64,000 bases of DNA, taken from NCBI RefSeq assembly GCF_001659605.2, contig NC_035170.2:27012020-27076019 (forward strand), written 5' to 3'. Shown piece by piece: positions 11,952 through 55,900 of the stretch. A program made the position numbers and the translations under genes. The notes below the pieces were generated by a model, which was given only the letters and a program-made list of their open reading frames with translations, was not told the DNA's origin and searched no databases. How positions within the stretch are numbered: position 1 is the first letter of the stretch; each line of letters begins with the position of its first letter. The DNA is from Manihot esculenta (Eukaryota > Streptophyta > Magnoliopsida > Malpighiales > Euphorbiaceae).

Positions 11952-12331
11952 CGATAGAAAAAAAAACCTTAATAGAGAACAAACTGTTTTTAATATTTTT
12001 TTACTACACCAATCAATACAAATACAATGCTCTTTAAATAGAGATTGTTTTACAAATACAATCTACTGAATCCCTATAATAATGCAATTATTCAAAAAAT
12101 AGTAACAGAAGCCAGATTATTTGGCTAAGAATATGAACTAATACCAAGTCAAGAACCTGCTGCACAAAGATATCAAATAACCAAATATATTCTTGTTGTG
12201 AAAAATAGAAAAATATTAGTCAACCTTATAACCCCTTTGACAACCTTATACCTACCATATTTTCCATGAACAGGTTGTACTTAATTTGCAGAATCACACT
12301 TATCACCTTATATCAGCTGTGATTGCTAACA
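11952..12331 (-). repeat. 3' LTR of copia element 2
   Basis: 380 bp. On the minus strand it starts TGTTAGCAATCACAGC at 12331, after the purine tract, and ends CTATCG at 11952. The polyprotein stop codon (12313-12315) lies just inside it. Confidence 0.95.
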
Positions 12332-15300
12332 TCCCCCCTCAAACTTGGCCGAGGTTGGAGGCGAAGTTTGGTCCGAAATGGAACAAGGGCAGATTTATGG
12401 AGTGGTTTAGTGAAGATGTCAGCGACCTGTTGAGTGCTGGGAATGTACTTAGTTACAAGAAGTCCTTGTGCAACACGTTCTCGTACAAAGTGATAGTCCA
12501 ACTCTATGTGTTTACTTCGTGCATGGAAAACGGGATTGATAGTGAGATAGAGAGCACTGAGATTATCACAAAACAAAAGCGGAGTAACCGTAAGAGGGAC
12601 CAAGAATTCTTGGAGCAAATATGTGAGCCAAGTAAGCTCTGCTGCCGCATGCGCCATAGCTCTATACTCTGCCTCCGTACTTGAGCGTGAGACCGTGTGC
12701 TGTTTTTTTGCACACCAGGAAATCAAATTGGAGCCGAGGAAAGTGCAGTAGCCTGTGGTGGATCGTCTTGTGACCGGACATCCGGCCCAATCAGCATCAG
12801 CAAATCCTTGAAGCGTTAAGGTGGAGTTGGAAGTAAAATGTAAACCATGGTCAAGAGTGCCTTTCACATAGCGGAGAATGCGATGTACAAACTTCATATG
12901 AAGTACCGTCGGATCGTGCATAAACTGTGAAACAAAGTTAACACTGAAAGCAATGTCAGGTCGTGTTAGAGTTAGATATTGTAAGGCGCCGACCATGCTG
13001 CGATATATAGTGGCATCAACTGAAGCAGCAGCCTTGGTAACCGGCGGTCGAAGCTCCAAGGGTGTCGACATGGGCTTACTATCAAGCATTCCAAACCTGT
13101 CAAGTAATGTGAATGCATAGTGGAACTGATTCAAGAACAATCCTTCAGACGTATGGGTAACTTCTATGCCTAAAAAATGATGCAATTGTCCTAGATCTTT
13201 CATGGCAAATTCCTTACATAATAACTGAACAAACTCATCAAGTAAAACAGCAGAAGAACCTGTTAACAACATATCATCGACATAAATTAACAAAGCGAGC
13301 ATGCCTTTGGAGGACTGAAAGAGGAACAGAGATGGATCAGCTAAGCTGCAAACAAACCCATACGAAATCAAAAACCTACTCAACCGATCAAACCAAGCTC
13401 GCGGAGCTTGTTTCAAACCATACAACGCTCGTTTCAGTTTACAGACATAATTTGGAAATTGAGAATCGGTCATACCTGACGGTTGAGCCATGTACAAATC
13501 CTCTGTAATGTGTCCATGCAGGAACGCATTTTTCACATCTAATTGCCTAATCTGCCATTTTCGAACCAATGCAATAGACAAAACAAGTCGGATTGTACCT
13601 GGTTTGATTACTGGAGAGAACGTTTCCGTAAAATCTTTACCATCAATCTGATGAAAACCTTTCGCTACCAGCCGTGCTTTCAACCGATCTAAGGTACCAT
13701 CGGATTTAAGCTTGGCTTTGAAGACCCATTTGGACCCGATGACATTCATATTTGGAAGCCTGGGAACCAAAGTCCAGGTTTCATTTTTGTGAAGAGCAAC
13801 TATCTCCTCCTCCATAGCACGCTTCCAACCAGGATGGGCCAGAGCTTGTCGGACTGTTCGAGGTTCTTTTGGAATGGATGAATCAACAGTTGTTAGAAGA
13901 GCATACCTGGGGTTAGGTTTCACAATGCCAGATTTTGACCTCGTCATCATCGAATGTTGAGGAACAGGAGGATCAATGTGTAAGTGTTCTGCCACTATTA
14001 TTGCTTGTCGATTTTCATCTTGGTGGATGGACGGAACAGATCCACCTGAGGTGGGTGACTGGGATTCAATTGACGGTCTAGGAATTGCAGGTGAATTGGG
14101 TGGTGTAGTTTCTGAAAACACCGACATATGGTGAGAGGAAATTGAATCCGCTTGGGATACTCTAGATTCCGATTGGGTTTGAGGTGTGAAATTGACATCA
14201 ATTGGTGAACTGAGGAGCGGGGGTGGTGAATTGGATGGCAACGTTGGAGCAGAATTCAAAGGTGTTATTTGTGGTGGGACGATTGCAGGTGTTAAAAGAC
14301 CAGGTGCAGGTAGGGGAATTGTTGAGATTGGGTGCTCTGGGTGCGACTCAGTAGTTTTTAAAGTAGTGGTCCAGTTGTCAATAATTTGACCAGCTTGGTT
14401 AATGACATCTGTACCCATTTTAGATTTGTAAGGAAAACACACTTCATCAAAAGCAACATTCCTGGATATTATATATCGTCTATTATGAATATCAAAGCAC
14501 CTGTATCCCTTATATTTTTCACTATAACCTGCAAAAACACAGAGAATAGATTTAGGATCAAACTTATTTTTTTTAGAGTCCCAAATATACGGAAAGCATT
14601 TACACCCAAAGACTCGCAGAATGGAATAATCAGGATGTTTTTTATGTAAAGCAAAGTATGGTGACTCAAAGGACAGAGATGACGAAGGTAACCGATTGAT
14701 AAGAAAAACAGCTGTTGCAAAAGCATCCATCCATAATGACAAAGGAACACGACTATGAAACAACATTGACATTCCTAATTCACGAATTATGCGATGACGG
14801 CGTTCTACTGCACCAGTTTGTTCAGGTGTATAAGGACAGGAGATTTGATGTTTTATTCCGGTTTCAAGAAAGTGTGAAGTTAAGGCATTATTAACAAATT
14901 CACCTCCACCATCAGAGTGAAAAATTTTAATAACAGCATCATATTGACGCTGAATAAATTTTTCGAAAGCAATAAAAGCAGAATAAAAATCTGATTTCAT
15001 ACGCAATGGAATTAGCCAAATATATTTAGTGCAGTCATCAACCAAACAAGCATAGTATCTAAATTTTTCAAGTGATAAAACCGGAGCTGGTCCCCATAAA
15101 TCACAATGAATTTTTTCAAACGGAACAGAAGTAGAGTTAGAACTATTTGAGAATGGAAATCGACTAAGTTTTCCAAGTTGACAACTATCACACAAATTTT
15201 TTATTTTTAATGGTCCATTGACAGAAATGAGGCCTTTATTATGTAAATTATTTAAAGCTGAAACTTGTGGATGTCTAAGTCGTTGGTGCCAGACATCTGC

Positions 15301-16695
15301 ACTGCACGACTTAAAGCGAAATGAAAAATGTGCTTCTGGATTGCTTGAAATAGTGTATAAATCACCCTTCTTTAGTCCCTGCATTATCATTGCACCTGTT
15401 TTCCGTTCCTTCACAATAAAAGACTTGTCAGTAAATTCACAATTGACTGGAAATTGAGAGGTTAATTGACTTACCGATAACAAATTTTTCTTTAAGCTTG
15501 GAACATATAATACGTTAGACAAAGGCAACACTTTGTTATTTTTCTTAATTTGAGAATTACCAATACCAACAATAGGAATTGAAGATCCATCACCAATAAT
15601 AACCTCATCACTACCTTTGTAATTTTGTAAATTTGTTACCATACCTCCATTTCCAGCCATATGATTTGTGGCACCGGTATCTGAGGTCCAATCATGATCA
15701 GCTACACTGTTATCCAATGTCAATGTTGCTAAGGCTTGTGGAAGATCATTTGACGGAGAGGTTGGTTGATACCACCAGCATATTTTGGCAATATGCCCTT
15801 TCCTGGAACAGATTTGGCATATCTCATTTTGGTACAGTTCCCGCTCTGCTGCAGTCATTCGTCGTTTACCAGGAGGTGCAGGACGACGTTGTTGTCCGCC
15901 ATAGTTGTTTTGACTCTGCGCTTGGAAGCCGCGTCCTGCTGAAGAGAAAGATGAGCGTGGGGTTTTGTTTTCAAACACCATTTGAGATCCACTAGATTGA
16001 GGAGTTTTTTTCTGCTGCGTGTAAAATGCCAAATGTGGTGTGTGCACAGTAAATGAGGAATTTCCAGAATTGGCAAACCAATTTCGTCTTTGATCATGGT
16101 TTTGAAGGTGCGAGATCAACTCTGAGTATGTGGGTCTGGGAGGTTTTAGCATTGTGGTTGTGAAGGTCTCATATTGGGGACCTAAACTTGTTAATAAACT
16201 GTAAACTTTTTCTTTTTCTAAAACTGGGCGTCCAATGGCAGCCAAACTGTCACATATATTTTTGAATTTGCGGATATGAGTATTAATATCCATGTTGTCT
16301 TCTTTGCGCAGATACGTCAATTGTTGACGGAGGGTAAATTCACGTTCCTGCGAGTTTTGAGCATAAGATTCTTTTAGTGCTTCCCAAACAGCATATGCTG
16401 TTTCGTTGCCAATAACGAGTCCAAGGGACTCTTCAGATAATGTGCCAATAATCCATCCGCGAAGCAAGCGATCTGCTTTCTGCCAGACTATAAAATTTTG
16501 TGTAGCCTGATCTGTAGCTGAGTCGGAGTTGGCTGGATTGGTTTGTGGTGGATTTGTTAAGTGGTTTAAGAGTTCTTGACTTTCAGCTAGCCCAAGAACT
16601 TGCTCACGCCATAGGAGGTAGTTGTTTGGAGTTAATTTAAGGGTAACGAAGTTACCTACATTCAGTGATAGGGATGAAGAGGCTGTTAAGGCCAT
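12313..16695 (-). CDS. Copia gag-pol polyprotein (intact frame)
   Basis: A single uninterrupted frame of 1460 codons, taking the ATG at 16695 (MALTASSSLSLNVGN). The frame is open about 20 codons further upstream, but that part overlaps the primer-binding site and LTR. Domains in order are gag; zinc knuckle CQICSRKGHIAKIC; protease DTGATNHM; pre-integrase HHCC region; integrase with CDLWGPAP, a DGGGEF block and QTGAVERRHR (D-D-E core residues present); reverse transcriptase with LLIYVDDMLLTGS; and RNase H with ADADWAG, RSSTEAEYRAMA and the closing CDNLSALYL and HIELDYHFVRE blocks. Length and order match autonomous plant copia elements. The stop lies 16 bases inside the 3' LTR. It replicates through an RNA intermediate in virus-like particles; present activity cannot be judged from sequence. 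Confidence 0.95.
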   Translation of the reverse strand: MALTASSSLSLNVGNFVTLKLTPNNYLLWREQVLGLAESQELLNHLTNPPQTNPANSDSATDQATQNFIVWQKADRLLRGWIIGTLSEESLGLVIGNETAYAVWEALKESYAQNSQEREFTLRQQLTYLRKEDNMDINTHIRKFKNICDSLAAIGRPVLEKEKVYSLLTSLGPQYETFTTTMLKPPRPTYSELISHLQNHDQRRNWFANSGNSSFTVHTPHLAFYTQQKKTPQSSGSQMVFENKTPRSSFSSAGRGFQAQSQNNYGGQQRRPAPPGKRRMTAAERELYQNEICQICSRKGHIAKICWWYQPTSPSNDLPQALATLTLDNSVADHDWTSDTGATNHMAGNGGMVTNLQNYKGSDEVIIGDGSSIPIVGIGNSQIKKNNKVLPLSNVLYVPSLKKNLLSVSQLTSQFPVNCEFTDKSFIVKERKTGAMIMQGLKKGDLYTISSNPEAHFSFRFKSCSADVWHQRLRHPQVSALNNLHNKGLISVNGPLKIKNLCDSCQLGKLSRFPFSNSSNSTSVPFEKIHCDLWGPAPVLSLEKFRYYACLVDDCTKYIWLIPLRMKSDFYSAFIAFEKFIQRQYDAVIKIFHSDGGGEFVNNALTSHFLETGIKHQISCPYTPEQTGAVERRHRIIRELGMSMLFHSRVPLSLWMDAFATAVFLINRLPSSSLSFESPYFALHKKHPDYSILRVFGCKCFPYIWDSKKNKFDPKSILCVFAGYSEKYKGYRCFDIHNRRYIISRNVAFDEVCFPYKSKMGTDVINQAGQIIDNWTTTLKTTESHPEHPISTIPLPAPGLLTPAIVPPQITPLNSAPTLPSNSPPPLLSSPIDVNFTPQTQSESRVSQADSISSHHMSVFSETTPPNSPAIPRPSIESQSPTSGGSVPSIHQDENRQAIIVAEHLHIDPPVPQHSMMTRSKSGIVKPNPRYALLTTVDSSIPKEPRTVRQALAHPGWKRAMEEEIVALHKNETWTLVPRLPNMNVIGSKWVFKAKLKSDGTLDRLKARLVAKGFHQIDGKDFTETFSPVIKPGTIRLVLSIALVRKWQIRQLDVKNAFLHGHITEDLYMAQPSGMTDSQFPNYVCKLKRALYGLKQAPRAWFDRLSRFLISYGFVCSLADPSLFLFQSSKGMLALLIYVDDMLLTGSSAVLLDEFVQLLCKEFAMKDLGQLHHFLGIEVTHTSEGLFLNQFHYAFTLLDRFGMLDSKPMSTPLELRPPVTKAAASVDATIYRSMVGALQYLTLTRPDIAFSVNFVSQFMHDPTVLHMKFVHRILRYVKGTLDHGLHFTSNSTLTLQGFADADWAGCPVTRRSTTGYCTFLGSNLISWCAKKQHTVSRSSTEAEYRAMAHAAAELTWLTYLLQEFLVPLTVTPLLFCDNLSALYLTINPVFHARSKHIELDYHFVRERVAQGLLVTKYIPSTQQVADIFTKPLHKSALVPFRTKLRLQPRPSLRGDVSNHS

Positions 16696-16712
16696 GAAGT
16701 TCCTGGATGTGA

Positions 16713-16725
16713 GGCTCTGATACCA
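16713..16725 (-). other. Primer-binding site of copia element 2
   Basis: On the minus strand TGGTATCAGAGCC follows the 5' LTR directly. It is complementary to initiator methionine tRNA. Confidence 0.9.
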
Positions 16726-17104
16726 CGATAGAAAAAAAACCTTAATAGAGAACAAACTGTTTTTAATATTTTTTTACTACACCAATCAATACAAATACAA
16801 TGCTCTTTAAATAGAGATTGTTTTACAAATACAATCTACTGAATCCCTATAATAATGCAATTATTCAAAAAATAGTAACAGAAGCCAGATTATTTGGCTA
16901 AGAATATGAACTAATACCAAGTCAAGAACCTGCTGCACAAAGATATCAAATAACCAAATATATTCTTGTTGTGAAAAATAGGAAAATATTAGTCAACCTT
17001 ATAACCCCTTTGACAACCTTATACCTACCATATTTTCCATGAACAGGTTGTACTTAATTTGCAGAATCACACTTATCACCTTATATCAGCTGTGATTGCT
17101 AACA
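16726..17104 (-). repeat. 5' LTR of copia element 2
   Basis: 379 bp, nearly identical to 11952-12331. It contains the element's promoter. On the minus strand TATTTAAAGAGCATT (plus 16800-16815) is a plausible TATA region. Confidence 0.95.
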
Positions 17105-19290: not shown

Positions 19291-19450
19291 ATATCTCTTC
19301 ACACGCTTCGACAGTCAAAAGAGTTTCTAGATTATTAATTATTCATTATTCTTTTATATTACTTGTGGGTGCGCCAGTCCGGCTTGACGAGTTAGTACTG
19401 CAGGTGCATATAATACTTTTTCCATTTCTGCTCATGTGCGCAGACCTGCA
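19291..19450 (+). promoter_or_regulatory. Original upstream flank of the UPL5-kinase gene
   Basis: Base composition becomes more balanced here (gtgggtgcgccagtccggcttgacgag). This stretch was directly upstream of 24205 before copia element 3 inserted, as shown by the CTGCA duplication at both junctions. Read in the frame of the downstream gene it is open from 19388 to the junction, so it may be former 5'UTR, promoter or part of an upstream exon. A tactgcag at 19396-19403 could serve as a splice acceptor. The role is inferred. Confidence 0.4.
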
Positions 19451-19697
19451 TGATAAGGATTATGATTGAGACTATATTGATAAGTGATAAGGATTAGGAT
19501 TGAGACTATACTGATAAGTGATAAGGATTAGGATTGAGACTATACTGATAAGGATTAGGATTCTATTTTCCTAATTTGTATAGATTTCGGTTTCCTAGTT
19601 TGTATAGATTTCAAATACTTGTTAATCAAGTCACACTTGTATGTATAAATACCTACTCTATAATCAATAAAGATATCTCTGATTGCCCAGTATATTA
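19451..19697 (+). repeat. 5' LTR of copia element 3 with 34-bp triplication
   Basis: The first 102 bp are three tandem 34-bp units starting at 19451, 19485 and 19519 (tgataaggattaggattgag type). Because the 3' LTR has the same three units, the triplication predates insertion. A TATA-like tataaata lies near 19645. Confidence 0.93.
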
Positions 19698-19772
19698 TGG
19701 TATCAGAGCCCAATAGGGTTTAAACACCATTATTATTATTATTATTTTTTTCAGATCTCAGAATCTCTAATC

Positions 19773-22700
19773 ATGGCGTCAAGCTCTAGTTCTAGTTCTG
19801 CGAGTTCACCCCAGCTTAATCATCAAATCTCAATTAAGCTTACCTCAGATAATTACTTGTTATAGAAGACGCAATTTCTTCCCATGGTTAGCGGTTGCGG
19901 CTTGAAGCATCATCTTGATCTCAGTACTCCACCTCCAGCAAAAATAAATTCGGATGGAACAGCAAACCCGAATTACAGCCAATGGGAGACCACTGATCAG
20001 CTCGTGTTTAGTTGGATAGCGTCATCACTATCCGAACGAGTTCTTTCTAAGATTGTTGGACTTACAACTGCCAATGAAGCCTGGACAAAACTTCAAACGG
20101 TTTATGCGTCTGGAAACCGTGCTCAGATTCGTGAGTTAAGAGGACAGCTTCATAATCTTCAACGAGATTCTCTGTCTATCGATGAGTATATGTCGAATAT
20201 TAAACTATTGTCCGATCGATTGACTGCTTTAGGACAGTCAGTTTCTGACGAAGACTTGGTTGAATTTGCTTGTCATGGGCTTGGCCCAACTTATAGCAGT
20301 TTTGTTCGTTTGCTTGATCAAAGTGATGCTACAATCGACTTTGACGAATTACATGCTCGTTTGTTGACTGAAGAACGCAGATTAAAGAAAGACGAGAAAG
20401 TTACTGTTGTGGCTCCATCAGCCCAGTTTTCACAAAGTCAGTACAATGCCCGAGGGAGAGGGCGAGGCCGAGGACGTGGTCGTGGTAGGAACTCCTCCGG
20501 CAGAGGTTATTATTCTGAAAATTCTGGCAGAGGGTATTCTTCGAATAATTATCCATTCTCTTACAATAATTATTCGAACCAATACTCTTTTGGTAATAGT
20601 CGTGGACAACAATCTTATGGAGGTTTGAATTCACTTCCTCAAGACAATTCCAATCTTCAATGTTATAATTGTAATGGTTTTGGCCATGTGGCTCGCATAT
20701 GTCCTTCTCCCAAAACTGATAATGGCAGTACCAAGAATCAAGTTCGGCCAGCAGCCAATATGGCGTCTAACCGAGTGCACCCTTCAGCTCCGTGGTTAAT
20801 GGACAGTGGTACTACACATCATCTGACCAATGATTTGGATAACCTAGCAATTCACTCTGAATATACTGGTCCCGAGGAAGTCGCTTTAGGTAATGGTTCC
20901 AAACTCCCAATTTCTCATGTTGGTCATTCCTCCATTAATGTTTCTCATCGCAAGTTTAATCTACGTGATATTCTTTGTGTTCCTAATGCCATTCAAAATC
21001 TTTTGTCAGTTTATTCCTTTTGTGTTTCTAACCGTGTATCTGTCGAATTTTTCCCTGACTTTTTTGATATAAAGGATTTGGTAACTAGGGAAATTCTGCA
21101 CAAAGGACCGAGTAAAGGGGGGCTTTATCCATTATCCGCCACAACACTCAACAATATTCAAGCCCATGCTGCGTCTCTTACTACATGGCATGCTCGTTTA
21201 GGACATGCCAATTTTCCTACCATTCGGAAGGCAGTCGAGTCAAGTTTAATTTCATCATCTATGTTACCTAAATCTTTATGTTCTGCTTGTTCAGTGTCTA
21301 AGAGTCATAAGCTTCCTTTTTGTTAATTCTGAATTTAAGGCAAAAGCACCTTTGGAGTTAATTTGTTCTGACTTATGGGGCCCAGCTCCGGTTTCTTCCG
21401 CTGACAATTTCAGATATTATGTTATTTTTTATGATCATTATTCCAAATATACTTGGATTTATTTTTTGCAACATAAATCTGAAGTTCTATCAATATTCCA
21501 GCAATTTCGCATAATAGTGGAAAAATACTTTGATCGTTCTATTAAGATGTTTCAGGCAGACTGGGGTGGCGAATTTCAAGCGTTGACAAGTTATCTTCGT
21601 GATAATGGTATATCTCAGAGAATCTCTTGTCCATACACACCGGAGCAAAATGGATGCGCTGAGAGAAAGCATCGGCATATTGTTGAAACAGGAAGAGCTC
21701 TCCTCGCTCATTCCGGCGTACCACACAAATATTGGACAAATGCTTTTGCTACTGCTGTTTATACCATAAACCGATTGCCTACACCACATCTTAATCACAA
21801 ATCACCCTTTGAGATACTTTTCATGTTCGGCCAAACTTCAAAAGTCATAGAGTTTTTGGTTGTTTGTGTTACCCTTGGTTACGTCCATATACCAAAAATA
21901 AATTAGAACCCCGTTCTAAACCTTGTGTTTTTCTTGGCTATAGTAGACAACATAAAGGTTACATTTGTCTTGATATGTCTTCTTCCAAATTATTTATCTC
22001 ACGTCACGTTGTCTTTGATGAACAGGTTTTCCCATTCATTGGTCAATCAGCAACTTGTACCACTGTCCCTTCACCATCAGCTTCTGCACCGGTTTTTTCC
22101 TTACCTACGGCTGCTATCCAAGAGCGGGTTCAATACCCAATTCAGGAGGTACTTCCCAATGGTACGGATTTACATTTGGCTGCCCATTCACAACCGCCTA
22201 CACCGTCTCAAGAAACTGCCGAGACTTCCCTAGCAGCTGAATCTAGTCCTCCACCTCTACAATTGGTTGAGTCACTACCTGTTGGTCTTGTCGAAGCTGC
22301 CTCTCCTGAACCAGTTACTACCCGACGCCATCATATGGTCACCAGAAATCAAACTGGGAACCTTAAACCGAGACAACCTTTCTCCTTGGCTGTTTCGGTT
22401 GATTCTACCTCAACACCAACTACTTTCACTCAAGCAAGCAAGGACTCTAGATGGCGATTGGCAATGCAAGAGGAGTATAATGCACTCATTTCGAATGGTA
22501 CTTGGCAACTTGTTCCACCAACTCCAACTCAAAATGTCATTGGGTGCAAGTGGGTTTATCGCACCAAGTTAAAAACCGATGGTTCTGTTGATCGGTACAA
22601 AGCACGCTTAGTAGCAAAGGGTTACCATCAGAGGCCTGGAATTGATTTTGATGACACCTACAGCCCGGTTGTCAAGCCATCTACCATTCGATTGATGTTA

Positions 22701-23963
22701 GCTTTGGCTCTACAACATGACTGGTTTGTTGACCAAATGGATATTTCTAACGCCTTTCTTCATGGCAATCTCGACGAAGATGTCTTTATGATCCAACCAC
22801 AAGGCTTCATTGATCCTCATAAGCCGAATCATGTTTGTCATCTAAAGCGTTCTTTATATGGTTTAAAACAATCTCCACGTATGTGGAATCAACGATTGAC
22901 TGATGCTTTACTTCACTTCGAGTTCAAGGGCTCCAAAACCGATACCTCTCTTTTCTTCTATACGGCTGGATCCTCAAAATTATTTTGCCTTGTCTACGTG
23001 GATGACATTTTAATCATTGGTAATAATCACTCCTTGGCCGAATCCTTACTATCCAATCTTAAGCAGCAGTTTGCAATCAAGCCAATGGGACGCCTCTCCT
23101 ATTTTTTGGGCATACAAGCAACATGGAATAAGAATGGTTTGTACTTGAATCAAAAGAAGTATATTTCAGATTTACTCCATCGAACGCAAATGGCAGAATG
23201 TAGCCCGGTCAATACTCCATCAAATGCTAAAGCAAAGCTCTCCTTAACAAGTGGTGCTCCATTCCATGATCAAACCTTATATCGAAGTGTTGTAGGAGCA
23301 CTTCAATATCTTACTTTCACACGTCCAGACCTCGCTTACTCGGTGAACAAGGTAGCCCAATTTATGCATTCTCCTACCACTAAACATTGGATGGCAGTAA
23401 AGCGGATTCTGCGCTATGTGAAAACTACATCAGAGTTTGGCCTCTTCTTTTCGAAAAGTACTCAACCAATTCTTCAAGGATATTGTGATGCAGATTGGGG
23501 TGGTTCTATTGATGACAGAAAATCCACCACAGGTTTCGCCATCTACTTCGGCAAGTCATTGATTTCATGGGTTTCCCGAAAACAAAAGTCTGTATCTCGG
23601 TCCTCCACCGAAGCCGAGTATCGAGCCATTGCTTCAGTAGCTTCTGAAATGGTATGGTTAAAGTCATTACTGAATGAAGTTGGAATTTCATTATCCACTG
23701 CACCAATCATCTGGAGTGATAACTTAAGTGCCACCTATATGACTGCTAATCCGATTTTCCATTCAAGAACAAAGCATATGGAGATAGATTTTCATTTTGT
23801 TAGAGATTTGGTCAAAAACAAGCACCTCTTTGTTCGTTACATTGGGACTGATCATCAAATTGCTGATGTACTGACTAAACCACTACCAAAATCTCGTTTT
23901 CAATTCTTTCGAGACAAGCTGTACTTTGCTGCCCCTCCGGTACAGCTTGCGGGGGCGTTATAA
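19773..23963 (+). pseudogene. Copia element 3 gag-pol, three lesions
   Basis: The start codon at 19773 gives MASSSSSSSASSPQLNHQIS. A TAG at 19863-19865 replaces the tryptophan expected in the LLWKTQ motif. The gag frame (19866-21326) has an RGRGRGRGR-rich segment and zinc knuckle CYNCNGFGHVARIC. A one-base gain in a T run near 21320 and a one-base loss near 21818-21825 move the integrase core (CSDLWGPAP, EQNGCAERKHRH) into another frame and back. Reverse transcriptase (VYVDDILIIGN), RNase H (DADWGGS, RSSTEAEYRAIA) and the end (LTKPLPKSRF) lie in one long frame from 21864 to 23963. The protease site reads DSGTTHH. Non-autonomous as it stands. Confidence 0.93.
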
Positions 23964-24204
23964 GGATTATGATTGAGACTATACTGATAAGTGATAAGGA
24001 TTAGGATTGAGACTATACTGATAAGTGATAAGGATTAGGATTGAGACTATACTGATAAGGATTAGGATTCTATTTTACTAATTTGTATAGATTTCGGTTT
24101 CCTAGTTTGTATAGATTTCAAATACTTGTTAACCAAGTCTCACTTGTATGTATAAATACCTACTCTATAATCAATAAAGATATCTCTGATTGCCCAGTAT
24201 ATTA
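23958..24204 (+). repeat. 3' LTR of copia element 3, possible gene promoter
   Basis: 247 bp, carrying the three 34-bp units at 23958, 23992 and 24026. Its first bases are TT rather than TG. A TATA box tataaata at 24151-24158 sits in the same orientation as the next gene, 121 bp before that gene's start codon. Transcription from this LTR would run directly into the UPL5-kinase gene. An aataaa lies at 24173-24178. Confidence 0.92.
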
Positions 24205-24278
24205 CTGCAAACTTTGATTGTTACCGTTTTGTTTATCCTGCTGAAAAGCCATTGAAAACCTCTCATCGAGAGAAAATT

Positions 24279-27200
24279 ATGGAACCTAAACCTGTCAAAT
24301 TATTCGTGAAGATGATGAATTCGGAAGATCCAACGATAGAAATCCATGCAGATTCTAATGATTCAATAAAGTCTATCCATGAGAAAATTCTAGTGGCAGC
24401 TAGAATCCCAGTTACAGAGCAGAAATTATTCCACAATGGGAAGCAACTCGATCAGTGTCTTCACACACTCGAAGACTGCTCAATTGAAAACGAAGCTTCG
24501 CTGGAGTTGAAGGTAGAACTCAGGTGGAACGACTCGGACGAATCATCAGCACTTCTCCAAAAGATTCACAAAATGAGTTCAAACTTTTGCCGCATGTGCC
24601 AAGGGGAATCTGTCTCCGAAGATCAAGATGTCTCGGATCATGATTACAAGACCTATCTCGAGGCGTTTATGCTCTCAAAAGAAGAGGATTTGGAGATTCT
24701 TAGTTTGTATTCTGTCCCTGCGACTATGATTATGCTTTACAACTCACCAACCGAAGGTAACAAATACTATGCTGATTTTCTGATAAGGTTTTCCATGGAC
24801 CTCATACTGATGAGTGCAGATGATTTTCTTGGTGATGAAAAAGCATCTTTAGTGTTAGAATTTTGTAATCTGCTCAGGGAAGTTTCTGCTGAAGATCCTG
24901 TGTATCAGTCATGCCGGACTACTCTAAGAAAATTGTTGGAAATAGGTAATTATGAGATACATTTCAATTATGGTCTACGCACAATGCTCGAAATTGTAGA
25001 ATTTTTTAACGAGTCGTTCGTAGCCTTATTAAATGGATTGAGCCAGACATTCTACCCGGGCGCACACGTTCAGTTATTGAAAATTCAATTTCGTGACTTC
25101 CAGACATTTTCACGGGTATTATGTAAAGCAATTGTCGATCTGGCAGAAGCCGATGAAGATGATGATGTTGATATTGAGGATGATGAGACAGATGAAGATG
25201 ATGAGGATGATGAGCATAAGGTTGATAATTATGAGAATGATGAGACCGATGAAGATGATGATGATGTTGATAATGAGGATGATGAGCATAAGGTTGATAA
25301 TGAGGATTATAAGCATACGAAAATTTTTATAGTTCTGGTCTCGACTGCAGCAATTAAAGTTGGATTCAAAGACCTGCTGAAGAAGATGGAGGATCATATT
25401 AGTCGTCTGCCAGTTGTATTACAAGTATTGAAATATACTGATGCATTGAAATTTAATGATGCTATGCGTTCAATTTCATTTTTGTATCTCGCCATTCTGA
25501 ATGAATTGAACAGCATGTCTCAGCTGGAGGAGGTCACCAAAGATGTAGTTCGGCAGGTATTAGAGGATATCAATGATATAAAATAAAATATTATATATTT
25601 AGTATATAATATTTTTACATTTTAAATTTTTATTAATTTGAAAAACATTTCTCAGCTGGTGAAGGGTGGCAAAGATAAATTTCGGCAGGTATTAGAGGAT
25701 CATAAGAATTCACTGCAACTGATGATTAAAAACATTACAAGGAAAGATGATTATGATTGGCTTTTTGAGCACAGTGATGTGCTTGATTCTGAATCCATGA
25801 TACATTTACTCATGATGAAGATGATCCCTGACGAAAAATTACACGACGAAGAGCTCTATAATCCTCTTATTCGCTGGTCTAAAAATCTAGACGTAAAGCT
25901 GTATAAGAAATTCAAAAAGAAGGATCTTACAGATCCTCAAGTATTGCAGGATTGGTTATGCAAGTTGTGCCAAATTCTACTCAAACCACAAAATCTTCTT
26001 TTCCTGGCGTGCCCAAATGATCCTACAAAATTATATCCTAATCCTGGTAAGATCGCACCTTTTTTTATATTTTCCTGAATTACCATCCATAATTATTGCT
26101 GTACTTGTTTTGTTTTTTTAAATTCAGAATGACTGATTTATAATGTTTTGCTACAAATTCATATTTTCTTTCCAGGATAGGCTTTCATTTTCTCGAATCA
26201 TAAGATCTCATAAAACCACCTTGCTGTGCTCCCTCAATTATAGAACTTTTCTTTAGTATCAATTTTAATTCAAATTAAATCTTAATAGGTGTGTTATATG
26301 TAAGAACTATAGATTTTCTTTCCTTTAATACAATGCAGAATTGGAGCCACACCCATTACACTGGGATTGTTTTGAAAATTGTGGTAAGGCGATTGCATTG
26401 GCATTGGTGCATGAAGTACACGTAGGTGTTGCTCTTCATCGTGTCTTTCTTTTGCAACTGGCTGGAAAGTATATTTCTGTAGAAGACGTAAGGGATGCAG
26501 ATCCATCTTTTTACAATAACAAGGCCAATAAGGAACCATTTCCCGATGATGATCAAATTCAGAATGAATTTATCAAGTCAATATCAGAACAGATACGCTT
26601 TTTCAAAAATGGCTTTGATAGTGTTTTTGGAAAATCAATCTTCCAACAGCTTTCTGATAATGGAATAGAGCCTGATGACCTTAACCTAGTTCTAAAAGGA
26701 AGCATAGAACTTGAATTTAATTCTGATGAGAATCTTGACGACAAGCAAAATGATCCTTTGATGCCCCAAGATGATGAAAGTGATCCCCTGACGTACAGGT
26801 ACTTTGTGTTACTCTAGTATAACTACTGTTTCCCTTTACTTTTCCATTCTCATCAAATCTCCAAATCTTGATCTATTAAACTGTAACTATGTTAAATACT
26901 GGCAGGTCAATTTACAAAATCTTAATATTCCGGAGTGGAAAAAGGGTAAGCGTCTCGGAGAGGGAAAATTTGGAAAAGTGTTTGAAGGATATGCTCCTGG
27001 TGGTTTCTTTTTTGCCATAAAAGAAATAAAGATTGAACCTGAGGCAAACATTGAGCAAATTTATGATGAAATTCGCTTATTATGTCAGTTAAGACATCCA
27101 AATATAGTCAAATACTATAGCATGGAGAAGCGTGAACGGAATCTCTATATTTTTCTGGAGCTTGTAACTACAGGTTCCCTCCAACGTGTGCATGAAAATT

Positions 27201-27673
27201 TTAAATTAGAAGATTCCCAGGTTTCACACTACACCAAGCAGATACTGCAAGGTCTAAAGTATCTCCATGAGCGAAATGTTGCTCATAGAGACATCAAATG
27301 TGCAAATATATTAGTGAATGAAAAAGGTCGCATAAAAATTGCAGATTTTGGATTGGCAAAAGTGATGGAATTAAACACTCTTATGAAGTCTTCTTACTGT
27401 GGCACACGAGGTTGGATGGCTCCTGAGGTTGCTAAATCGGGCAATCAATATGGATTTAAAGCTGATATTTGGAGCCTTGGTTGCACAGTCTTGGAGATGT
27501 TAACAAGGAAACCTCCACACGTGATGGAAAGTGGGAAATTGCTAGATCTCCCTGATCTTCCATCAGAGCATTCACGAGATTTTATCATGAAGTGCTTGAA
27601 AGTTAATCCAGATGATCGTCCATCTGCTGCTGAGCTTTTGCAACATCCTTTTGTGAAAGGTTTTGGCTTATAA
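24279..27673 (+). CDS. UPL5-like HECT-N-lobe / MEKK1-type kinase fusion
   Basis: Inferred exons: 24279-25556, 25656-26046, 26339-26805 (or 26798) and 26906-27673. With the 26805 donor the protein is 967 aa. The start is the ATG at 24279 (A at -3, G at +4). Residues about 6-80 are ubiquitin-like (FVKMMNSEDPTIEI). Residues about 285-350 are an acidic Asp/Glu repeat. Exon 2 resembles the UPL5 linker (LFEHSDVLDSES, FLACPNDPTKLYPNP). Exon 3 is a HECT N-lobe (CGKAIALALVHEVHVGV, LLQLAGKYISVEDVRDADP). The HECT C-lobe with its catalytic cysteine is absent. Exon 4 is a whole MEKK1-like kinase: glycine loop LGEGKFGKV, Lys in FFFAIK, HRDIKCANIL, DFGLAK, WMAPEV. It likely phosphorylates and lacks ligase activity. 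UPL5 and MEKK1 assignments are from remembered family sequence. The exon 3-4 splice is uncertain, and a pseudogene is possible. Confidence 0.75.
25143..25320 (+). repeat. GAT-rich acidic-repeat coding tract
   Basis: Imperfect repeats of gatgaagatgatgaggatga in exon 1 encode Asp/Glu runs broken by two HKVDN units and one degenerate one. This is a length-variable low-complexity insertion within the UPL5-like region. The same tract produces long spurious frames on the minus strand. Confidence 0.85.
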
Positions 27674-33431: not shown

Positions 33432-33875
33432 TCAACGGTAACTCTTTTGGAACCTGGCACGAGCACCACGACCACCGAACTTCTTAGGCTCACAGCGCCT
33501 AGGATCAGCGACAAGCAGAGTCCTATCGTACCTGACCAAAATGTCTTTGATCTCCTTTTTGCTCTGCTCGTCTACGTACTTCTGATAGAAGGCAACCAGA
33601 GCTTTAGCGATGCTCTGGCGGATGGCATAAATCTGGGAGGTGTGCCCACCGCCCTTTACGCGAATGCGCATATCGACGCCAGCGAAACGGTGTCTTCCAA
33701 GAAGGAGGATGGGCTCGTAAGCTTTGAATCTGAGGATCTCGGGTTCAACCAGCTCAATAGGGCAGCCGTTTATCTTGATTAGGCCTCTCCCACGCTTGCA
33801 GTAGGTGACGGCCACGGCAGTCTTCTTGCGGCCGAAGCACTGGACGGACTCGATTGGTGCCGCTGGCGCTGCCAT
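33432..33875 (-). CDS. RPS16: 40S ribosomal protein S16 (uS9)
   Basis: A complete, intronless 147-aa frame starting [20 protein letters not shown] and ending [14 protein letters not shown]. This is the uS9 family of the small ribosomal subunit, whose C-terminal tail reaches the decoding region and contacts P-site tRNA. Family hallmarks are the [17 protein letters not shown] start, the [19 protein letters not shown] core and the basic RFQKSYR tail. Length equals the usual plant protein, and plant S16 genes are typically intronless as here. Nothing is truncated or altered. The upstream region has a TATA box and a telo-box, in keeping with growth-linked expression. Confidence 0.98.
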
Positions 33876-33967
33876 TGTTAGGGACTGCGAGAAGAGTAAA
33901 CTGAGCGATATGAGAGAGAATTTAGCACGAGTGATCTATGTTTATATAGCGGGATGTTAGGGTTTTT
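33876..33967 (-). promoter_or_regulatory. RPS16 promoter with TATA box and telo-box
   Basis: On the minus strand GCTATATAAAC (33950-33940) lies about 65 bp before the start codon. AAACCCTAA (33966-33958) lies just upstream of that. AAACCCTAA is the telo-box common in plant ribosomal-protein promoters. Transcription likely starts near 33912, leaving a short leader. Confidence 0.7.
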
Positions 33968-37978: not shown

Positions 37979-50546
<12,568 letters not shown>

Positions 50547-52900: not shown

Positions 52901-55900
52901 TTACTTGTGGGTTTTGCAATGCGGATAAAGCCCTGATATGTGCTCCGGCATGAAATCATGCCTCGTAAGAATTCCGACGATTGGAGGCCTCTGCAACACA
53001 GACAAAAAATACAAGGAAAGCATTCAAGGTTTAAACAGATAAACCAGACTAAAACGATCTAAAACAGATTGAATTGGCTACTGATTCCATAAAACTTTTG
53101 AAGCATTAGCAAACAAGATAACACAATTCGAAACGAATTTGGAATTAGAAATGTCTAATTATAAAAATACTTCTAACTTGGTCACTAAATCAGTCCAATT
53201 ATTTTTATTGTGGCAATTTAGGCAAATTGCTTAAATTAGTTGCAATATCCAAGAGGTGAAATCAAATGAGTAAGTTTTCCCTACAGCCAGGTGTATACAC
53301 TGAGCCAATCTATATATGCTATATAAGATAACACCATGACATATCATGCCTATAAATGCAAATGATAGCTTTCTATTAACTAGTGTATGAACACTTGGGT
53401 GCGGATAAGAATTTTCCTAAATTGATTTGGGGGTGTATCGGTGCTGATATTGGCAGCCCATATAGCAGAATTCAATACAAAATGGTGGACCCCATATGAC
53501 ATTTTTCTTAGTACTATTAGTTTCAACTGAGATTTAAACTCCAGACTTCTCAACCATGGAAAAGATTCCAATACCAATGAACTTGGGACAATTTTTTTTT
53601 CTTTAAAAAGAAAAAAGTCAACTAAGGTTGGCTTCTTTTTATTCATTTGAGTTACTTTAACCTGGTTAATCTTGATTGACCAAAGCTGAAGCAACTAGTC
53701 TGTAACAGCCGATATTTAAAACCCTGAAATTATGAGCAACAGAAATGAATAATAAGCAGAGTGAGTGAGTCTTACCCCTGGTGTCTTTGGTACAACGCAC
53801 AGGTGTCTGAGGCCAAGCTCACGGAAGAGCACAGCAGCTTTAGCTAGAGACATGGTTTCAATCACAGTGTATGGAGATGTATTCGAAATGGGATGGAGAT
53901 CCACATACATCTCCATCTCCTCCTCTGAAATGTTGAGATCCTCAAGCTTGACCCCCTTGCCTGAACCTGCCTTGGCAAAATCATGTGCTTTAAACATGCT
54001 CAAAATGCCTGATCTCCTCATCATCCTCCCCTTGGTAAACGTCTTTTCTTTAAGCAACACAAGCAGATGAGACCTTAGAACAAGTCCACACAGCTCTGCA
54101 GCATCTGTGTAAGGCGGCTCATCAATCACAGGGAATCCGTTATGGCCTGTCATTTTCAAAGTATGTAATATATTCCCTACTTTTTCTACCCCAGAAAATG
54201 CAATTAACGGGCCAGATACTACATCACTTGCAACTAAATTTCTCATGTATGGTTCGGCATGAGCTTCCATGTAAGGTAATCCTTTCAGCTTCACTATTTG
54301 ATCATAAACTCCCTTGTTGAAACTGTCTGCTACAGTTTTTGAAACGAGGAGAACAAGCATCATCAAAGGAAGCATTAATAGATCATTAGTGAGTTCAAGA
54401 AGTATGACACAGAGAGAAACCGTCATCCTCATGGTCCCCCCGAGGAAAGAGGCAGCTCCAAGGAGGGCAAACAGACTAACATCAAGACTAGAGAGGGGAA
54501 CAAGCAGGTTTCCAACAAGGCGACCATAGGAGGCCCCAGCAAGAATGACAGGGATGAAAAGTCCAGAAGGAATAGCAATGCCATAAGTAATTATGCCAAG
54601 GCCGTAAGTAGCAAAAAAGAAAACCAGAAGGGTGGGGAGCTTAAATCTCTTTTCAGTGCCAGGTGTTAACAAATTGCGTATAGCATCATCATTGGTGTTG
54701 AAAAAGAGGGAAGCAAGGTCATTGTAAGAGTTTGGTGGACACTGGAAATTTTTATAGTTTCCAGAACGACCTTCAGTGGGGCATAGCTCTGACAGGTCAG
54801 CAGGACAGGGAATGCATGGTGCGAGCCATGGGAGGCCATAGGAGCAACATGAGGTCAAAAGGGAAATGATGATCACGAGCAGAATCTTGAATGAAGGACC
54901 CCTCCTATAAGTCATTCAAAAATCAACATAAGCAAAAGTAGGGTGAATTTTGCATATTCAGACATCTATTCACAGAAGCACTTGACTTATTTCCTTTCTG
55001 AATCTTTAGTTTCATGGATGATTCAAACTGTACTGCAACATTTTTAAAATACTCAGTTTGCAAATTATTGACCTATGCATAATAAATAACTCCAAAAAGT
55101 GCTCCCAAAAAAATCTTAATGGTGCTCAACAATAACACAGTAACAAATATAAATGGCATCAGAAGTAGAAACTTCCAGGGACATACTCATTGATGATGCT
55201 ATAAGTGCGGACGACTTTGTCAATACAGTAATTGTAGAGGCTTCCAAAAATTCCTCCCACAACTCCGAGGAATATAACTGCCAGAAGATCAAGTGTGTCG
55301 TAAGTGGCTTTTGTTGAACTTACATCAAACATGATCAGACCTCCTTCCCCAAATAGCCCACATTTTCCAGTACGGCAAAACCCTATGAAGCCTCTCAACA
55401 CCACTGCTACAACAGCTGTTGTAAAGAAAGTTCTCCAAAGCAGAGCACTTCTCCACCTGAATTATATGAGAAAACAGCATGATCCCAATCAAGTTAGAAC
55501 ATAAAAGAAATACTAAAAGCTTTAAAAACATAAAAAGATTCTAATCAAGAAACAAGCAGACGATCCAGAACTGAAATCACTATTTATTTGCAACACAATT
55601 CCATATGTCCTAAGTGCTAAACACAATTAACAAATTGAATGTAGCTACCATCCCCTGCATTCTGAACAAGTCCAGACTCCAGACCCCATACTTCTTTAAG
55701 CATGTCATTCAAATCATAAATACAGATGCATCATTTTTAAAGTAGATTGTTATTTAATGCACTATGTACTTCTGAAACTTGAAAGTGAAATATAGTAGCA
55801 ACTATAACAGTTCGAGTAAGTAAACATAGAGGCTGCTACTCTGACGCAAGGAAGGAAAAATGAGCGAGGAGGAAGATAGAAAAAAAGAGATACCATGAAA

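What the first reader, a model, noticed from the sequence alone, without database searches (positions are those of the whole stretch)
24279..27673. Fusion of a UPL5-like HECT ligase scaffold to a MEKK1-type kinase
Seen: one exon chain runs from a ubiquitin-like domain through UPL5-like linker and HECT N-lobe motifs (IALALVHEVHVGV, DVRDADP) straight into a complete kinase domain, with only about 100 bp between and no room for a separate promoter. The HECT C-lobe with the catalytic cysteine is replaced by the kinase. Known: in Arabidopsis the HECT ligase UPL5 targets WRKY53 for degradation, and MEKK1 binds and phosphorylates WRKY53. Inference: the protein may keep UPL5 substrate-binding surfaces and add a kinase, turning a degradation module into a phosphorylation module, or act as a dominant competitor of UPL5.
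Basis: partly seen in the sequence, partly recalled or inferred. Interest (0 to 1): 0.9.

Follow-up and report, generated by a model that had tools for sequence, protein, structure and literature searches.

The report
Half ubiquitin-ligase, half kinase plant family
In cassava and other plants of the spurge family, the front half of a ubiquitin ligase (UPL5) has been joined to a signalling kinase of the MEKK1 type, and the joined gene has multiplied into a family whose members swap halves; the copy read here is one of them, possibly a failing one.

Summary
Window 24279-27673 encodes a ubiquitin-like domain, UPL5-like linker, HECT N-lobe fragment and a complete MEKK1-type kinase. With an in-frame exon set it gives, letter for letter, the Manihot esculenta UniRef protein P0121 (912 aa). 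Of 230 proteins held, 48 carry HECT-N plus kinase: 47 listed as Manihot, Hevea, Jatropha, Ricinus or Euphorbia, one unnamed. None has room for the catalytic HECT C-lobe before the kinase; catalytic kinase residues are mostly kept. Fusion kinases form one clade: 98/96 with six rows dropped, 81/63 with them. The junction matches the end of a UPL5 exon; the kinase is one exon here, suggesting a retroposed kinase. Paralogues are mosaics with exchanged halves. Best reading: a dead ligase front now carries a MEKK1-type kinase. Corrections: the obvious exon 3-4 splice is out of frame; the in-frame donor (26806) is weak, the coding region holds a duplication with a stop, and a young Copia element ends 69 bp before the ATG, so this copy may be crippled. 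A WRKY53 role is untested. Ten literature searches (capped listings) showed no description of the fusion.

The parts
24279..25556 (+). exon 1: ATG, ubiquitin-like domain (24300-24521), UPL5-like linker, acidic DE-rich stretch
   Evidence: identical to P0121 in translation
25557..25688 (+). candidate intron 1 (132 bp) that removes an in-frame TAA at 25584; its GT and AG come from the two copies of a tandem duplication. P0121 uses the same donor but resumes at 25821
   Evidence: (family D7)
25689..26046 (+). exon 2: linker leading into the HECT region
   Evidence: like P0123/P0124
26047..26338 (+). intron 2
   Evidence: donor rank 1 of 149 GT sites by a recalled weight matrix
26339..26805 (+). 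exon 3: HECT N-lobe fragment (Pfam best stretch 26359-26520) and linker ending ESDPLTYRYF
26799..26800 (+). strong competing GT donor; using it with 26906 shifts the frame and loses the kinase
   Evidence: rank 2 of 149
26806..26905 (+). intron 3 (100 bp), in-frame version, weak donor TTT|GTGTTA
26906..27673 (+). exon 4: complete MEKK1-type kinase (26939-27655) in one exon
25494..25700 (+). tandem duplication (copies 25494-25568 and 25626-25700, 77% alike) inside the coding region
19451..24204 (+). Copia LTR retrotransposon just upstream (LTRs 19451-19697 and 23958-24204, 241 of 245 aligned bases alike; CTGCA on both sides at 19446-19450 and 24205-24209), leaving 69 bp before the ATG

Best explanation
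The locus is one member of a gene family confined, as far as seen, to Euphorbiaceae, born when the 5' exons of a UPL5-type HECT ligase gene were joined, through the intron that follows the exon ending ...WFWK, to the kinase domain of a MEKK1-type MAP3K, probably as an intronless retrocopy. The products are not ubiquitin ligases: the catalytic C-lobe is absent, and in the window's subclade a further stretch of the N-lobe is too. They are MEKK1-type kinases whose own N-terminal region was replaced by the UPL5 ubiquitin-like domain, linker and N-lobe fragment. Most likely working: the UPL5-derived front binds UPL5 partners and the kinase phosphorylates them, or feeds the MAPK cascade from that site, so a destroy module became a phosphorylate module. 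Shown: architecture, junction, distribution among the proteins seen, loss of the C-lobe, conserved kinase residues, mosaic paralogues. Inferred: retroposition, partner binding, kinase activity, targets. The window copy itself may be poorly spliced and abnormally transcribed.
Against: No transcript or protein evidence; all relatives are gene models, some with gaps (P0125 and P0131 lack part of the kinase). In this copy the in-frame donor scores -6.6 against 4.5 for the frame-breaking one (recalled weights); three other in-frame site pairs score better in sum but drop conserved parts of exon 3 or more. Altered kinase residues: P0005 Glu and P0100 Tyr for the VAIK Lys, P0159 Thr for the C-helix Glu, P0144 and P0155 Asn for the Lys after HRD, P0156 Asn for the DFG Asp. 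With the long rows kept, support is only 81/63 and 4 label changes are counted because three models in the clade lack the HECT part. Clades A and B end the UPL5 part about 11 residues apart. Canonical MEKK1 introns were inferred only from gene models of Vitis, Linum and Cephalotus. Partner binding was not tested.
Confidence: 0.6

Rival explanations
1. The window copy is a decaying member: the strong donor at 26799 is used, the frame breaks, and at most a UBL-HECT-N stub is made; the family is real but this locus contributes nothing as a kinase. (Compatible with the best explanation for the rest of the family.)
For: Donor scores; Lys codon at the donor missing here; coding-region duplication with a TAA; Copia insertion 69 bp before the ATG.
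Against: The in-frame GT is still there and is the one P0121's annotation uses; kinase frame and catalytic residues are intact; in-frame GT-AG pairs remove the TAA.
Confidence: 0.4
2. Two neighbouring genes were merged by annotation; the kinase is transcribed on its own.
For: Only 100 bp between the parts; the evidence consists of gene models.
Against: First Met of the exon 4 frame is residue 73, after the catalytic Lys; linker and junction recur across species and clades; no C-lobe found between or after the parts.
Confidence: 0.04
3. The protein works as a dominant competitor of UPL5: the front half binds UPL5 substrates or partners and shields them, kinase activity being incidental.
For: No room for a C-lobe before the kinase in any of the 48; six proteins of the 48 have an altered kinase residue, P0005 among them.
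Against: Catalytic residues are kept in nearly all scorable rows, which an incidental domain would not need.
Confidence: 0.15
4. Clades A and B are two independent UPL5-MEKK1 fusions.
For: UPL5 parts end about 11 residues apart; A and B are deeply split in both trees.
Against: Same two parent families, same order, same acceptor position where it can be seen (window, P0001, P0165), one kinase clade at 98/96 (81/63).
Confidence: 0.12

Closest known systems
UPL5 HECT-type E3 ligase (Arabidopsis UPL5; represented here by Tetracentron P0146, itself a truncated gene model)
   Same: ubiquitin-like domain, linker, HECT N-lobe start; tblastn of P0146 hits exons 1, 2 and 3
   Different: no C-lobe or catalytic Cys, N-lobe shortened, kinase in its place
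MEKK1-type MAP3K (STE11 class, plant MAPKKK1)
   Same: complete kinase domain; named rows at the top are 46-58% identical; similar residues just before the kinase
   Different: MEKK1 N-terminal region replaced by UPL5 parts; kinase in a single exon in the window
Chimeric retrogenes of plants (rice; PMC6881317, search listing and start of abstract only)
   Same: a captured domain behind 5' exons of another gene (if the kinase is indeed a retrocopy)
   Different: shared across a plant family, amplified, mosaic paralogues
Populus MAPKKK1b-like P0068/P0094/P0107
   Same: next relatives of the fusion kinases when kept in the tree (96/85); P0107 has a similar stretch before the kinase
   Different: different N-terminus, no HECT part found

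Membership tests
HECT E3 ubiquitin ligase (UPL5) | ubiquitin-like domain at the N-terminus | tested here: met
   Pfam 2.3e-12, window residues 8-81
HECT E3 ubiquitin ligase (UPL5) | complete HECT N-lobe | tested here: not met
   Pfam best stretch 36-90 of 306 in the exon, 3-90 in P0121; for sister P0127 the PDB match ends at TOM1 residue 202 and only a sub-threshold piece resumes at 256
HECT E3 ubiquitin ligase (UPL5) | C-lobe with catalytic cysteine | tested here: not met
HECT E3 ubiquitin ligase (UPL5) | ubiquitin transfer activity | not testable with these tools
   needs a biochemical assay
MEKK1-type MAP3K | full protein kinase domain | tested here: met
   Pkinase 2-263 of 263, 1.1e-69
MEKK1-type MAP3K | catalytic Lys, HRD Asp, DFG Asp | tested here: met
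   present in the window sequence; 42/44, 42/42, 44/45 of scorable family rows
MEKK1-type MAP3K | groups with plant MEKK1/MAPKKK1 kinases | tested here: inconclusive
   nearest named hits are plant MAPKKK1 proteins, but the trees hold no other MAP3K class as a control
MEKK1-type MAP3K | phosphorylates MAP2Ks | not testable with these tools
   needs a kinase assay
Chimeric retrogene | captured part lacks the introns of its parent | tested here: inconclusive
   kinase is one ORF in the window and reads through without a break in P0165 (taken to be genomic because it reads an intron); parental introns inferred from read-in residues in three genera only
Chimeric retrogene | poly-A tract or target-site repeat | not tested
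   event thought too old to expect them

The most novel reading that the evidence does not exclude
A Euphorbiaceae-wide natural Rosetta-stone fusion: UPL5 and MEKK1, which in Arabidopsis both act on WRKY53, were wired into one protein that uses the UPL5 front to find its targets and the kinase to modify them, and the family is being diversified in arrays by exchange of front and back halves (with an NLR-type Rx_N front in one model), as immune receptor families are.
Probability: 0.25. Interest if true: 0.87.

Novelty: new variant of a known kind. Interest (0 to 1): 0.68.

Why it matters
If the family works as proposed, a ubiquitin-ligase scaffold was turned into a kinase-targeting scaffold in one step, and a direct UPL5-MEKK1 functional link, so far argued from separate Arabidopsis work, becomes testable in crops (cassava, rubber). 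It also corrects database names: several of these proteins are called E3 ubiquitin-protein ligase UPL5, which is very probably wrong as to activity. The mosaic paralogues are a case of modular evolution among related gene copies.

Tried and rejected
A frameshift or assembly error as the cause: not needed, because an in-frame GT lies 7 bases further on and the annotated cassava protein uses it. Separate kinase gene: rejected, the first Met of the exon 4 frame comes after the catalytic Lys. The rows shown by the fold search with the P0154 model (50 of 2000) and by VIA-align with the P0127 model are kinases only, so the UPL5 part was barely tested by fold and nothing is concluded from that. Cassava MAPKKK family paper PMC5668296 (passages only): no occurrence of ubiquitin in the main text. 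PMC9202857 (passages only): its three 'hect' hits were two of hectares and one reference title. Ten literature searches showed no paper describing the fusion, judged by titles and abstract starts; listings were capped (for example 20 of 355, 10 of 237, 15 of 102) and most subscription papers are not held. Absence outside Euphorbiaceae rests on the best 120 rows and the 27 rows; candidate lengths were limited to 0.55-1.75 times 255 aa, one search was probably diluted by acidic-repeat words, and searches scored only the nearly 8000 candidates sharing most words.

In one search the in-frame donor was mistyped as 26811 in one print line and so got no rank; its score (-6.6) is from the junction table. 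The weight matrix is recalled and approximate. In one search the bar at ten residues before the Trp was set by my script, so it proves an exon start only for the rows with visible intron (window, P0001, P0165); four of 34 rows did not match the pattern (P0129, P0134, P0140, P0141). A regex meant for the same purpose printed nothing.

Full report
What is in the window. The plus strand at 24279-27673 encodes, in order, a ubiquitin-like domain, a long linker, the beginning of a HECT domain and a complete protein kinase. In the exon 3 frame the best HECT stretch covers profile positions 36-90 of 306; in P0121 it is 3-90; the kinase covers 2-263 of 263. Exons 24279-25556, 25821-26046, 26339-26805 and 26906-27673 translate to the UniRef protein P0121 of Manihot esculenta, 912 of 912 letters. 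The window is therefore from cassava or something very close to it.

Gene structure. Exon 1 runs into TAA at 25584. GGCAG|GTATTAGAGGA occurs twice, 132 bp apart, inside a tandem duplication of 75 nt (77% alike), so the donor of the first copy and the acceptor of the second can remove the stop and keep the frame (956 aa, no stop); P0121 uses the same donor with an acceptor at 25821. Paralogues P0123 and P0124 read straight through here as coding sequence in their models, so the intron looks new in this copy; that tandem duplication of AGGT can create introns is recalled, not looked up. Exon 3 to exon 4 is the point that matters. The strongest nearby donor (26799, rank 2 of 149 GT sites) and the acceptor at 26906 (rank 4 of 209) give a frameshift. 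The in-frame donor consistent with P0121 is 26806, TTT|GTGTTA. Of 17 other clade B rows matched have a Lys at this point (12 directly before the tenth residue ahead of the Trp, 3 two residues earlier), P0159 has Glu and Ricinus P0005 none; the window copy has none, which fits loss of the codon that formed the donor consensus (an inference, since no paralogue DNA was available). A Copia element with CTGCA on both sides and LTRs alike at 241 of 245 aligned bases ends just upstream; with a recalled rate of 1.3e-8 per site and year that is under a million years. So the copy is intact as a coding sequence under one splicing model, and doubtful as an expressed gene.

The family. One search (residues 1-700 of the model) gave 27 proteins, 26 of Manihot or Hevea and one of Tetracentron; 18 of the 27 list PF00240, PF00632 and PF00069 together. 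(profile of seven rows) added Jatropha, Euphorbia lathyris and E. peplus; one search gave Ricinus P0005 and Hevea P0100. Profiles built here found HECT-N plus kinase in 48 of the 230 proteins held and HECT-N without kinase in 2 (P0137, P0146). By the listings the 48 are 12 Manihot, 30 Hevea (two assemblies and some fragments), 2 Jatropha, 2 Euphorbia, 1 Ricinus and 1 unnamed contig. Manihot is Crotonoideae, Ricinus Acalyphoideae, Euphorbia Euphorbioideae. Locus tags such as P3X46_013401 to 013435 and MANES_10G109546 to 112780 suggest tandem arrays; no array was read. No fusion from outside Euphorbiaceae was seen in the listed rows; the limits of those searches are under Tried and rejected.

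What was kept and lost. The gap between the HECT-N match and the kinase is at most 71 residues in the 48 (the 71 is P0165, which reads an intron), so a C-lobe does not fit there. P0125 and P0167 have tails of 109 and 99 residues after the kinase; Pfam finds no HECT in these tails. Among 18 proteins scanned the best HECT stretch never passes position 221 of 306; P0169 has no Pfam HECT match at 0.001, though the profile made here matches it. Clade A proteins P0154, P0157 and P0158 reach 216-221; window-type proteins P0121, P0124, P0127, P0132 and P0133 stop at 90-93. Against solved HECT domains the P0154 stretch aligns to NEDD4L chain residues 49-271 of 383, while the P0127 stretch aligns to TOM1 98-202 of 412 and only a sub-threshold piece resumes at 256. 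From recalled E6AP biochemistry the missing stretch includes E2-binding residues; this was not tested. Kinase residues among scorable rows: glycine loop 44 of 44, VAIK Lys 42 of 44 (P0005 Glu, P0100 Tyr), C-helix Glu 41 of 42 (P0159 Thr), HRD Asp 42 of 42, Lys after HRD 40 of 42 (P0144, P0155 Asn), DFG Asp 44 of 45 (P0156 Asn); rows with gaps set aside.

Origin. In 7 of 13 clade B rows measured the stretch from the LEDLxxxLxG motif to the junction is 31 residues, the same as in Tetracentron P0146 up to WFWK, after which that model appears to read into an intron; the other 6 have 30, 30, 35, 36, 38 and 38, and 3 clade A rows 19-20. Where intron sequence can be seen, in the window, in P0001 and in P0165, the kinase exon starts 10 residues before the conserved Trp. 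P0165 shows an intron-like insert between FKYY and SDRRRHV and no break within the kinase. In the window the kinase is one exon. Gene models of Vitis, Linum and Cephalotus begin with apparent read-in residues (CSD) just before GFFFA(V/I)KE, which suggests that canonical MEKK1 has an intron there. A retroposed kinase captured behind UPL5 exons is the simplest account; DNA-level joining followed by intron loss is not excluded.

Trees. Kinase tree, 68 rows: 24 fusions plus three HECT-less Euphorbiaceae models form one group at 81/63, with Jatropha P0007 next (85/54) and then Populus (96/85). Dropping 6 rows (3 Populus, P0007, Ceratopteris, Leersia) raises it to 98/96; the drop was mine, made because most of those rows lie on long branches. 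Front-half tree, 23 rows: A at 100/100 and B at 100/99, rooted on one UPL5-like row only. The two trees disagree inside clade B: P0123 groups with the window gene and P0124 in the front half (100/99) and with P0127 in the kinase (100/99); P0129/P0130 group with P0127 in front (100/100) and with Ricinus in the kinase (97/67). Sliding identity shows the switch (windows of 60): P0123 is 68-98% like P0121 and 26-63% like P0127 up to about residue 360, then 50-78% and 71-90%; P0129 is 75-95% like P0127 up to about residue 420 and 37-63% in the windows from 391-450 on. The window's duplication lies near the corresponding place. Exchange between family members at this point is the natural reading; uneven rates would hardly give so sharp a step.

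Function. [quoted passage not shown] MEKK1 can phosphorylate WRKY53 and bind its promoter (PMC6963213, passages). A fusion of the two in another lineage is what the Rosetta-stone argument (recalled) predicts for partners in one pathway. That is an inference from architecture; nothing here shows binding or activity. A chance fusion followed by selection for an unrelated role remains open.

Novelty. Database names are E3 ubiquitin-protein ligase UPL5, MAPKKK or hypothetical protein. Ten searches of the held library showed no paper that describes the fusion in their capped listings. I file it as a new variant: the parts are known, the combination and its amplification are, to that extent, undescribed.

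Noticed in passing
25494-25568 and 25626-25700: Tandem duplication of coding sequence that supplies both splice sites of a candidate new intron; it lies near the place where paralogues P0123 and P0129 switch parent.
   Followed up: partly
19451-24204: Young Copia element flanked by CTGCA on both sides, with broken reading frames, leaving 69 bp before the gene's ATG.
   Followed up: partly
P0133 residues 9-95 (Manihot): Rx_N domain (typical of NLR immune receptors) in front of a UBL-HECT-kinase protein; could be a merged gene model.
   Followed up: no
P0143 and P0137 (Hevea): Two HECT N-lobe modules in tandem in P0143 and apparently in P0137 (by reading).
   Followed up: no
P0005 (Ricinus): Fusion kinase with Glu in place of the VAIK Lys, possibly a pseudokinase.
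   Followed up: no
P0068, P0094, P0107 (Populus): Kinases next to the fusion clade with a different N-terminus; P0107 has a similar stretch just before the kinase.
   Followed up: no
12313-16773, minus strand: Second Copia element with one open reading frame of 1486 aa.
   Followed up: no
33432-33935 minus; 53716-54915 minus; 47194-47580 minus: Ordinary genes: ribosomal protein S9/S16 family and a CLC chloride channel (Pfam); the third reads like a dynamin-type GTPase (recalled; Pfam gave nothing).
   Followed up: partly
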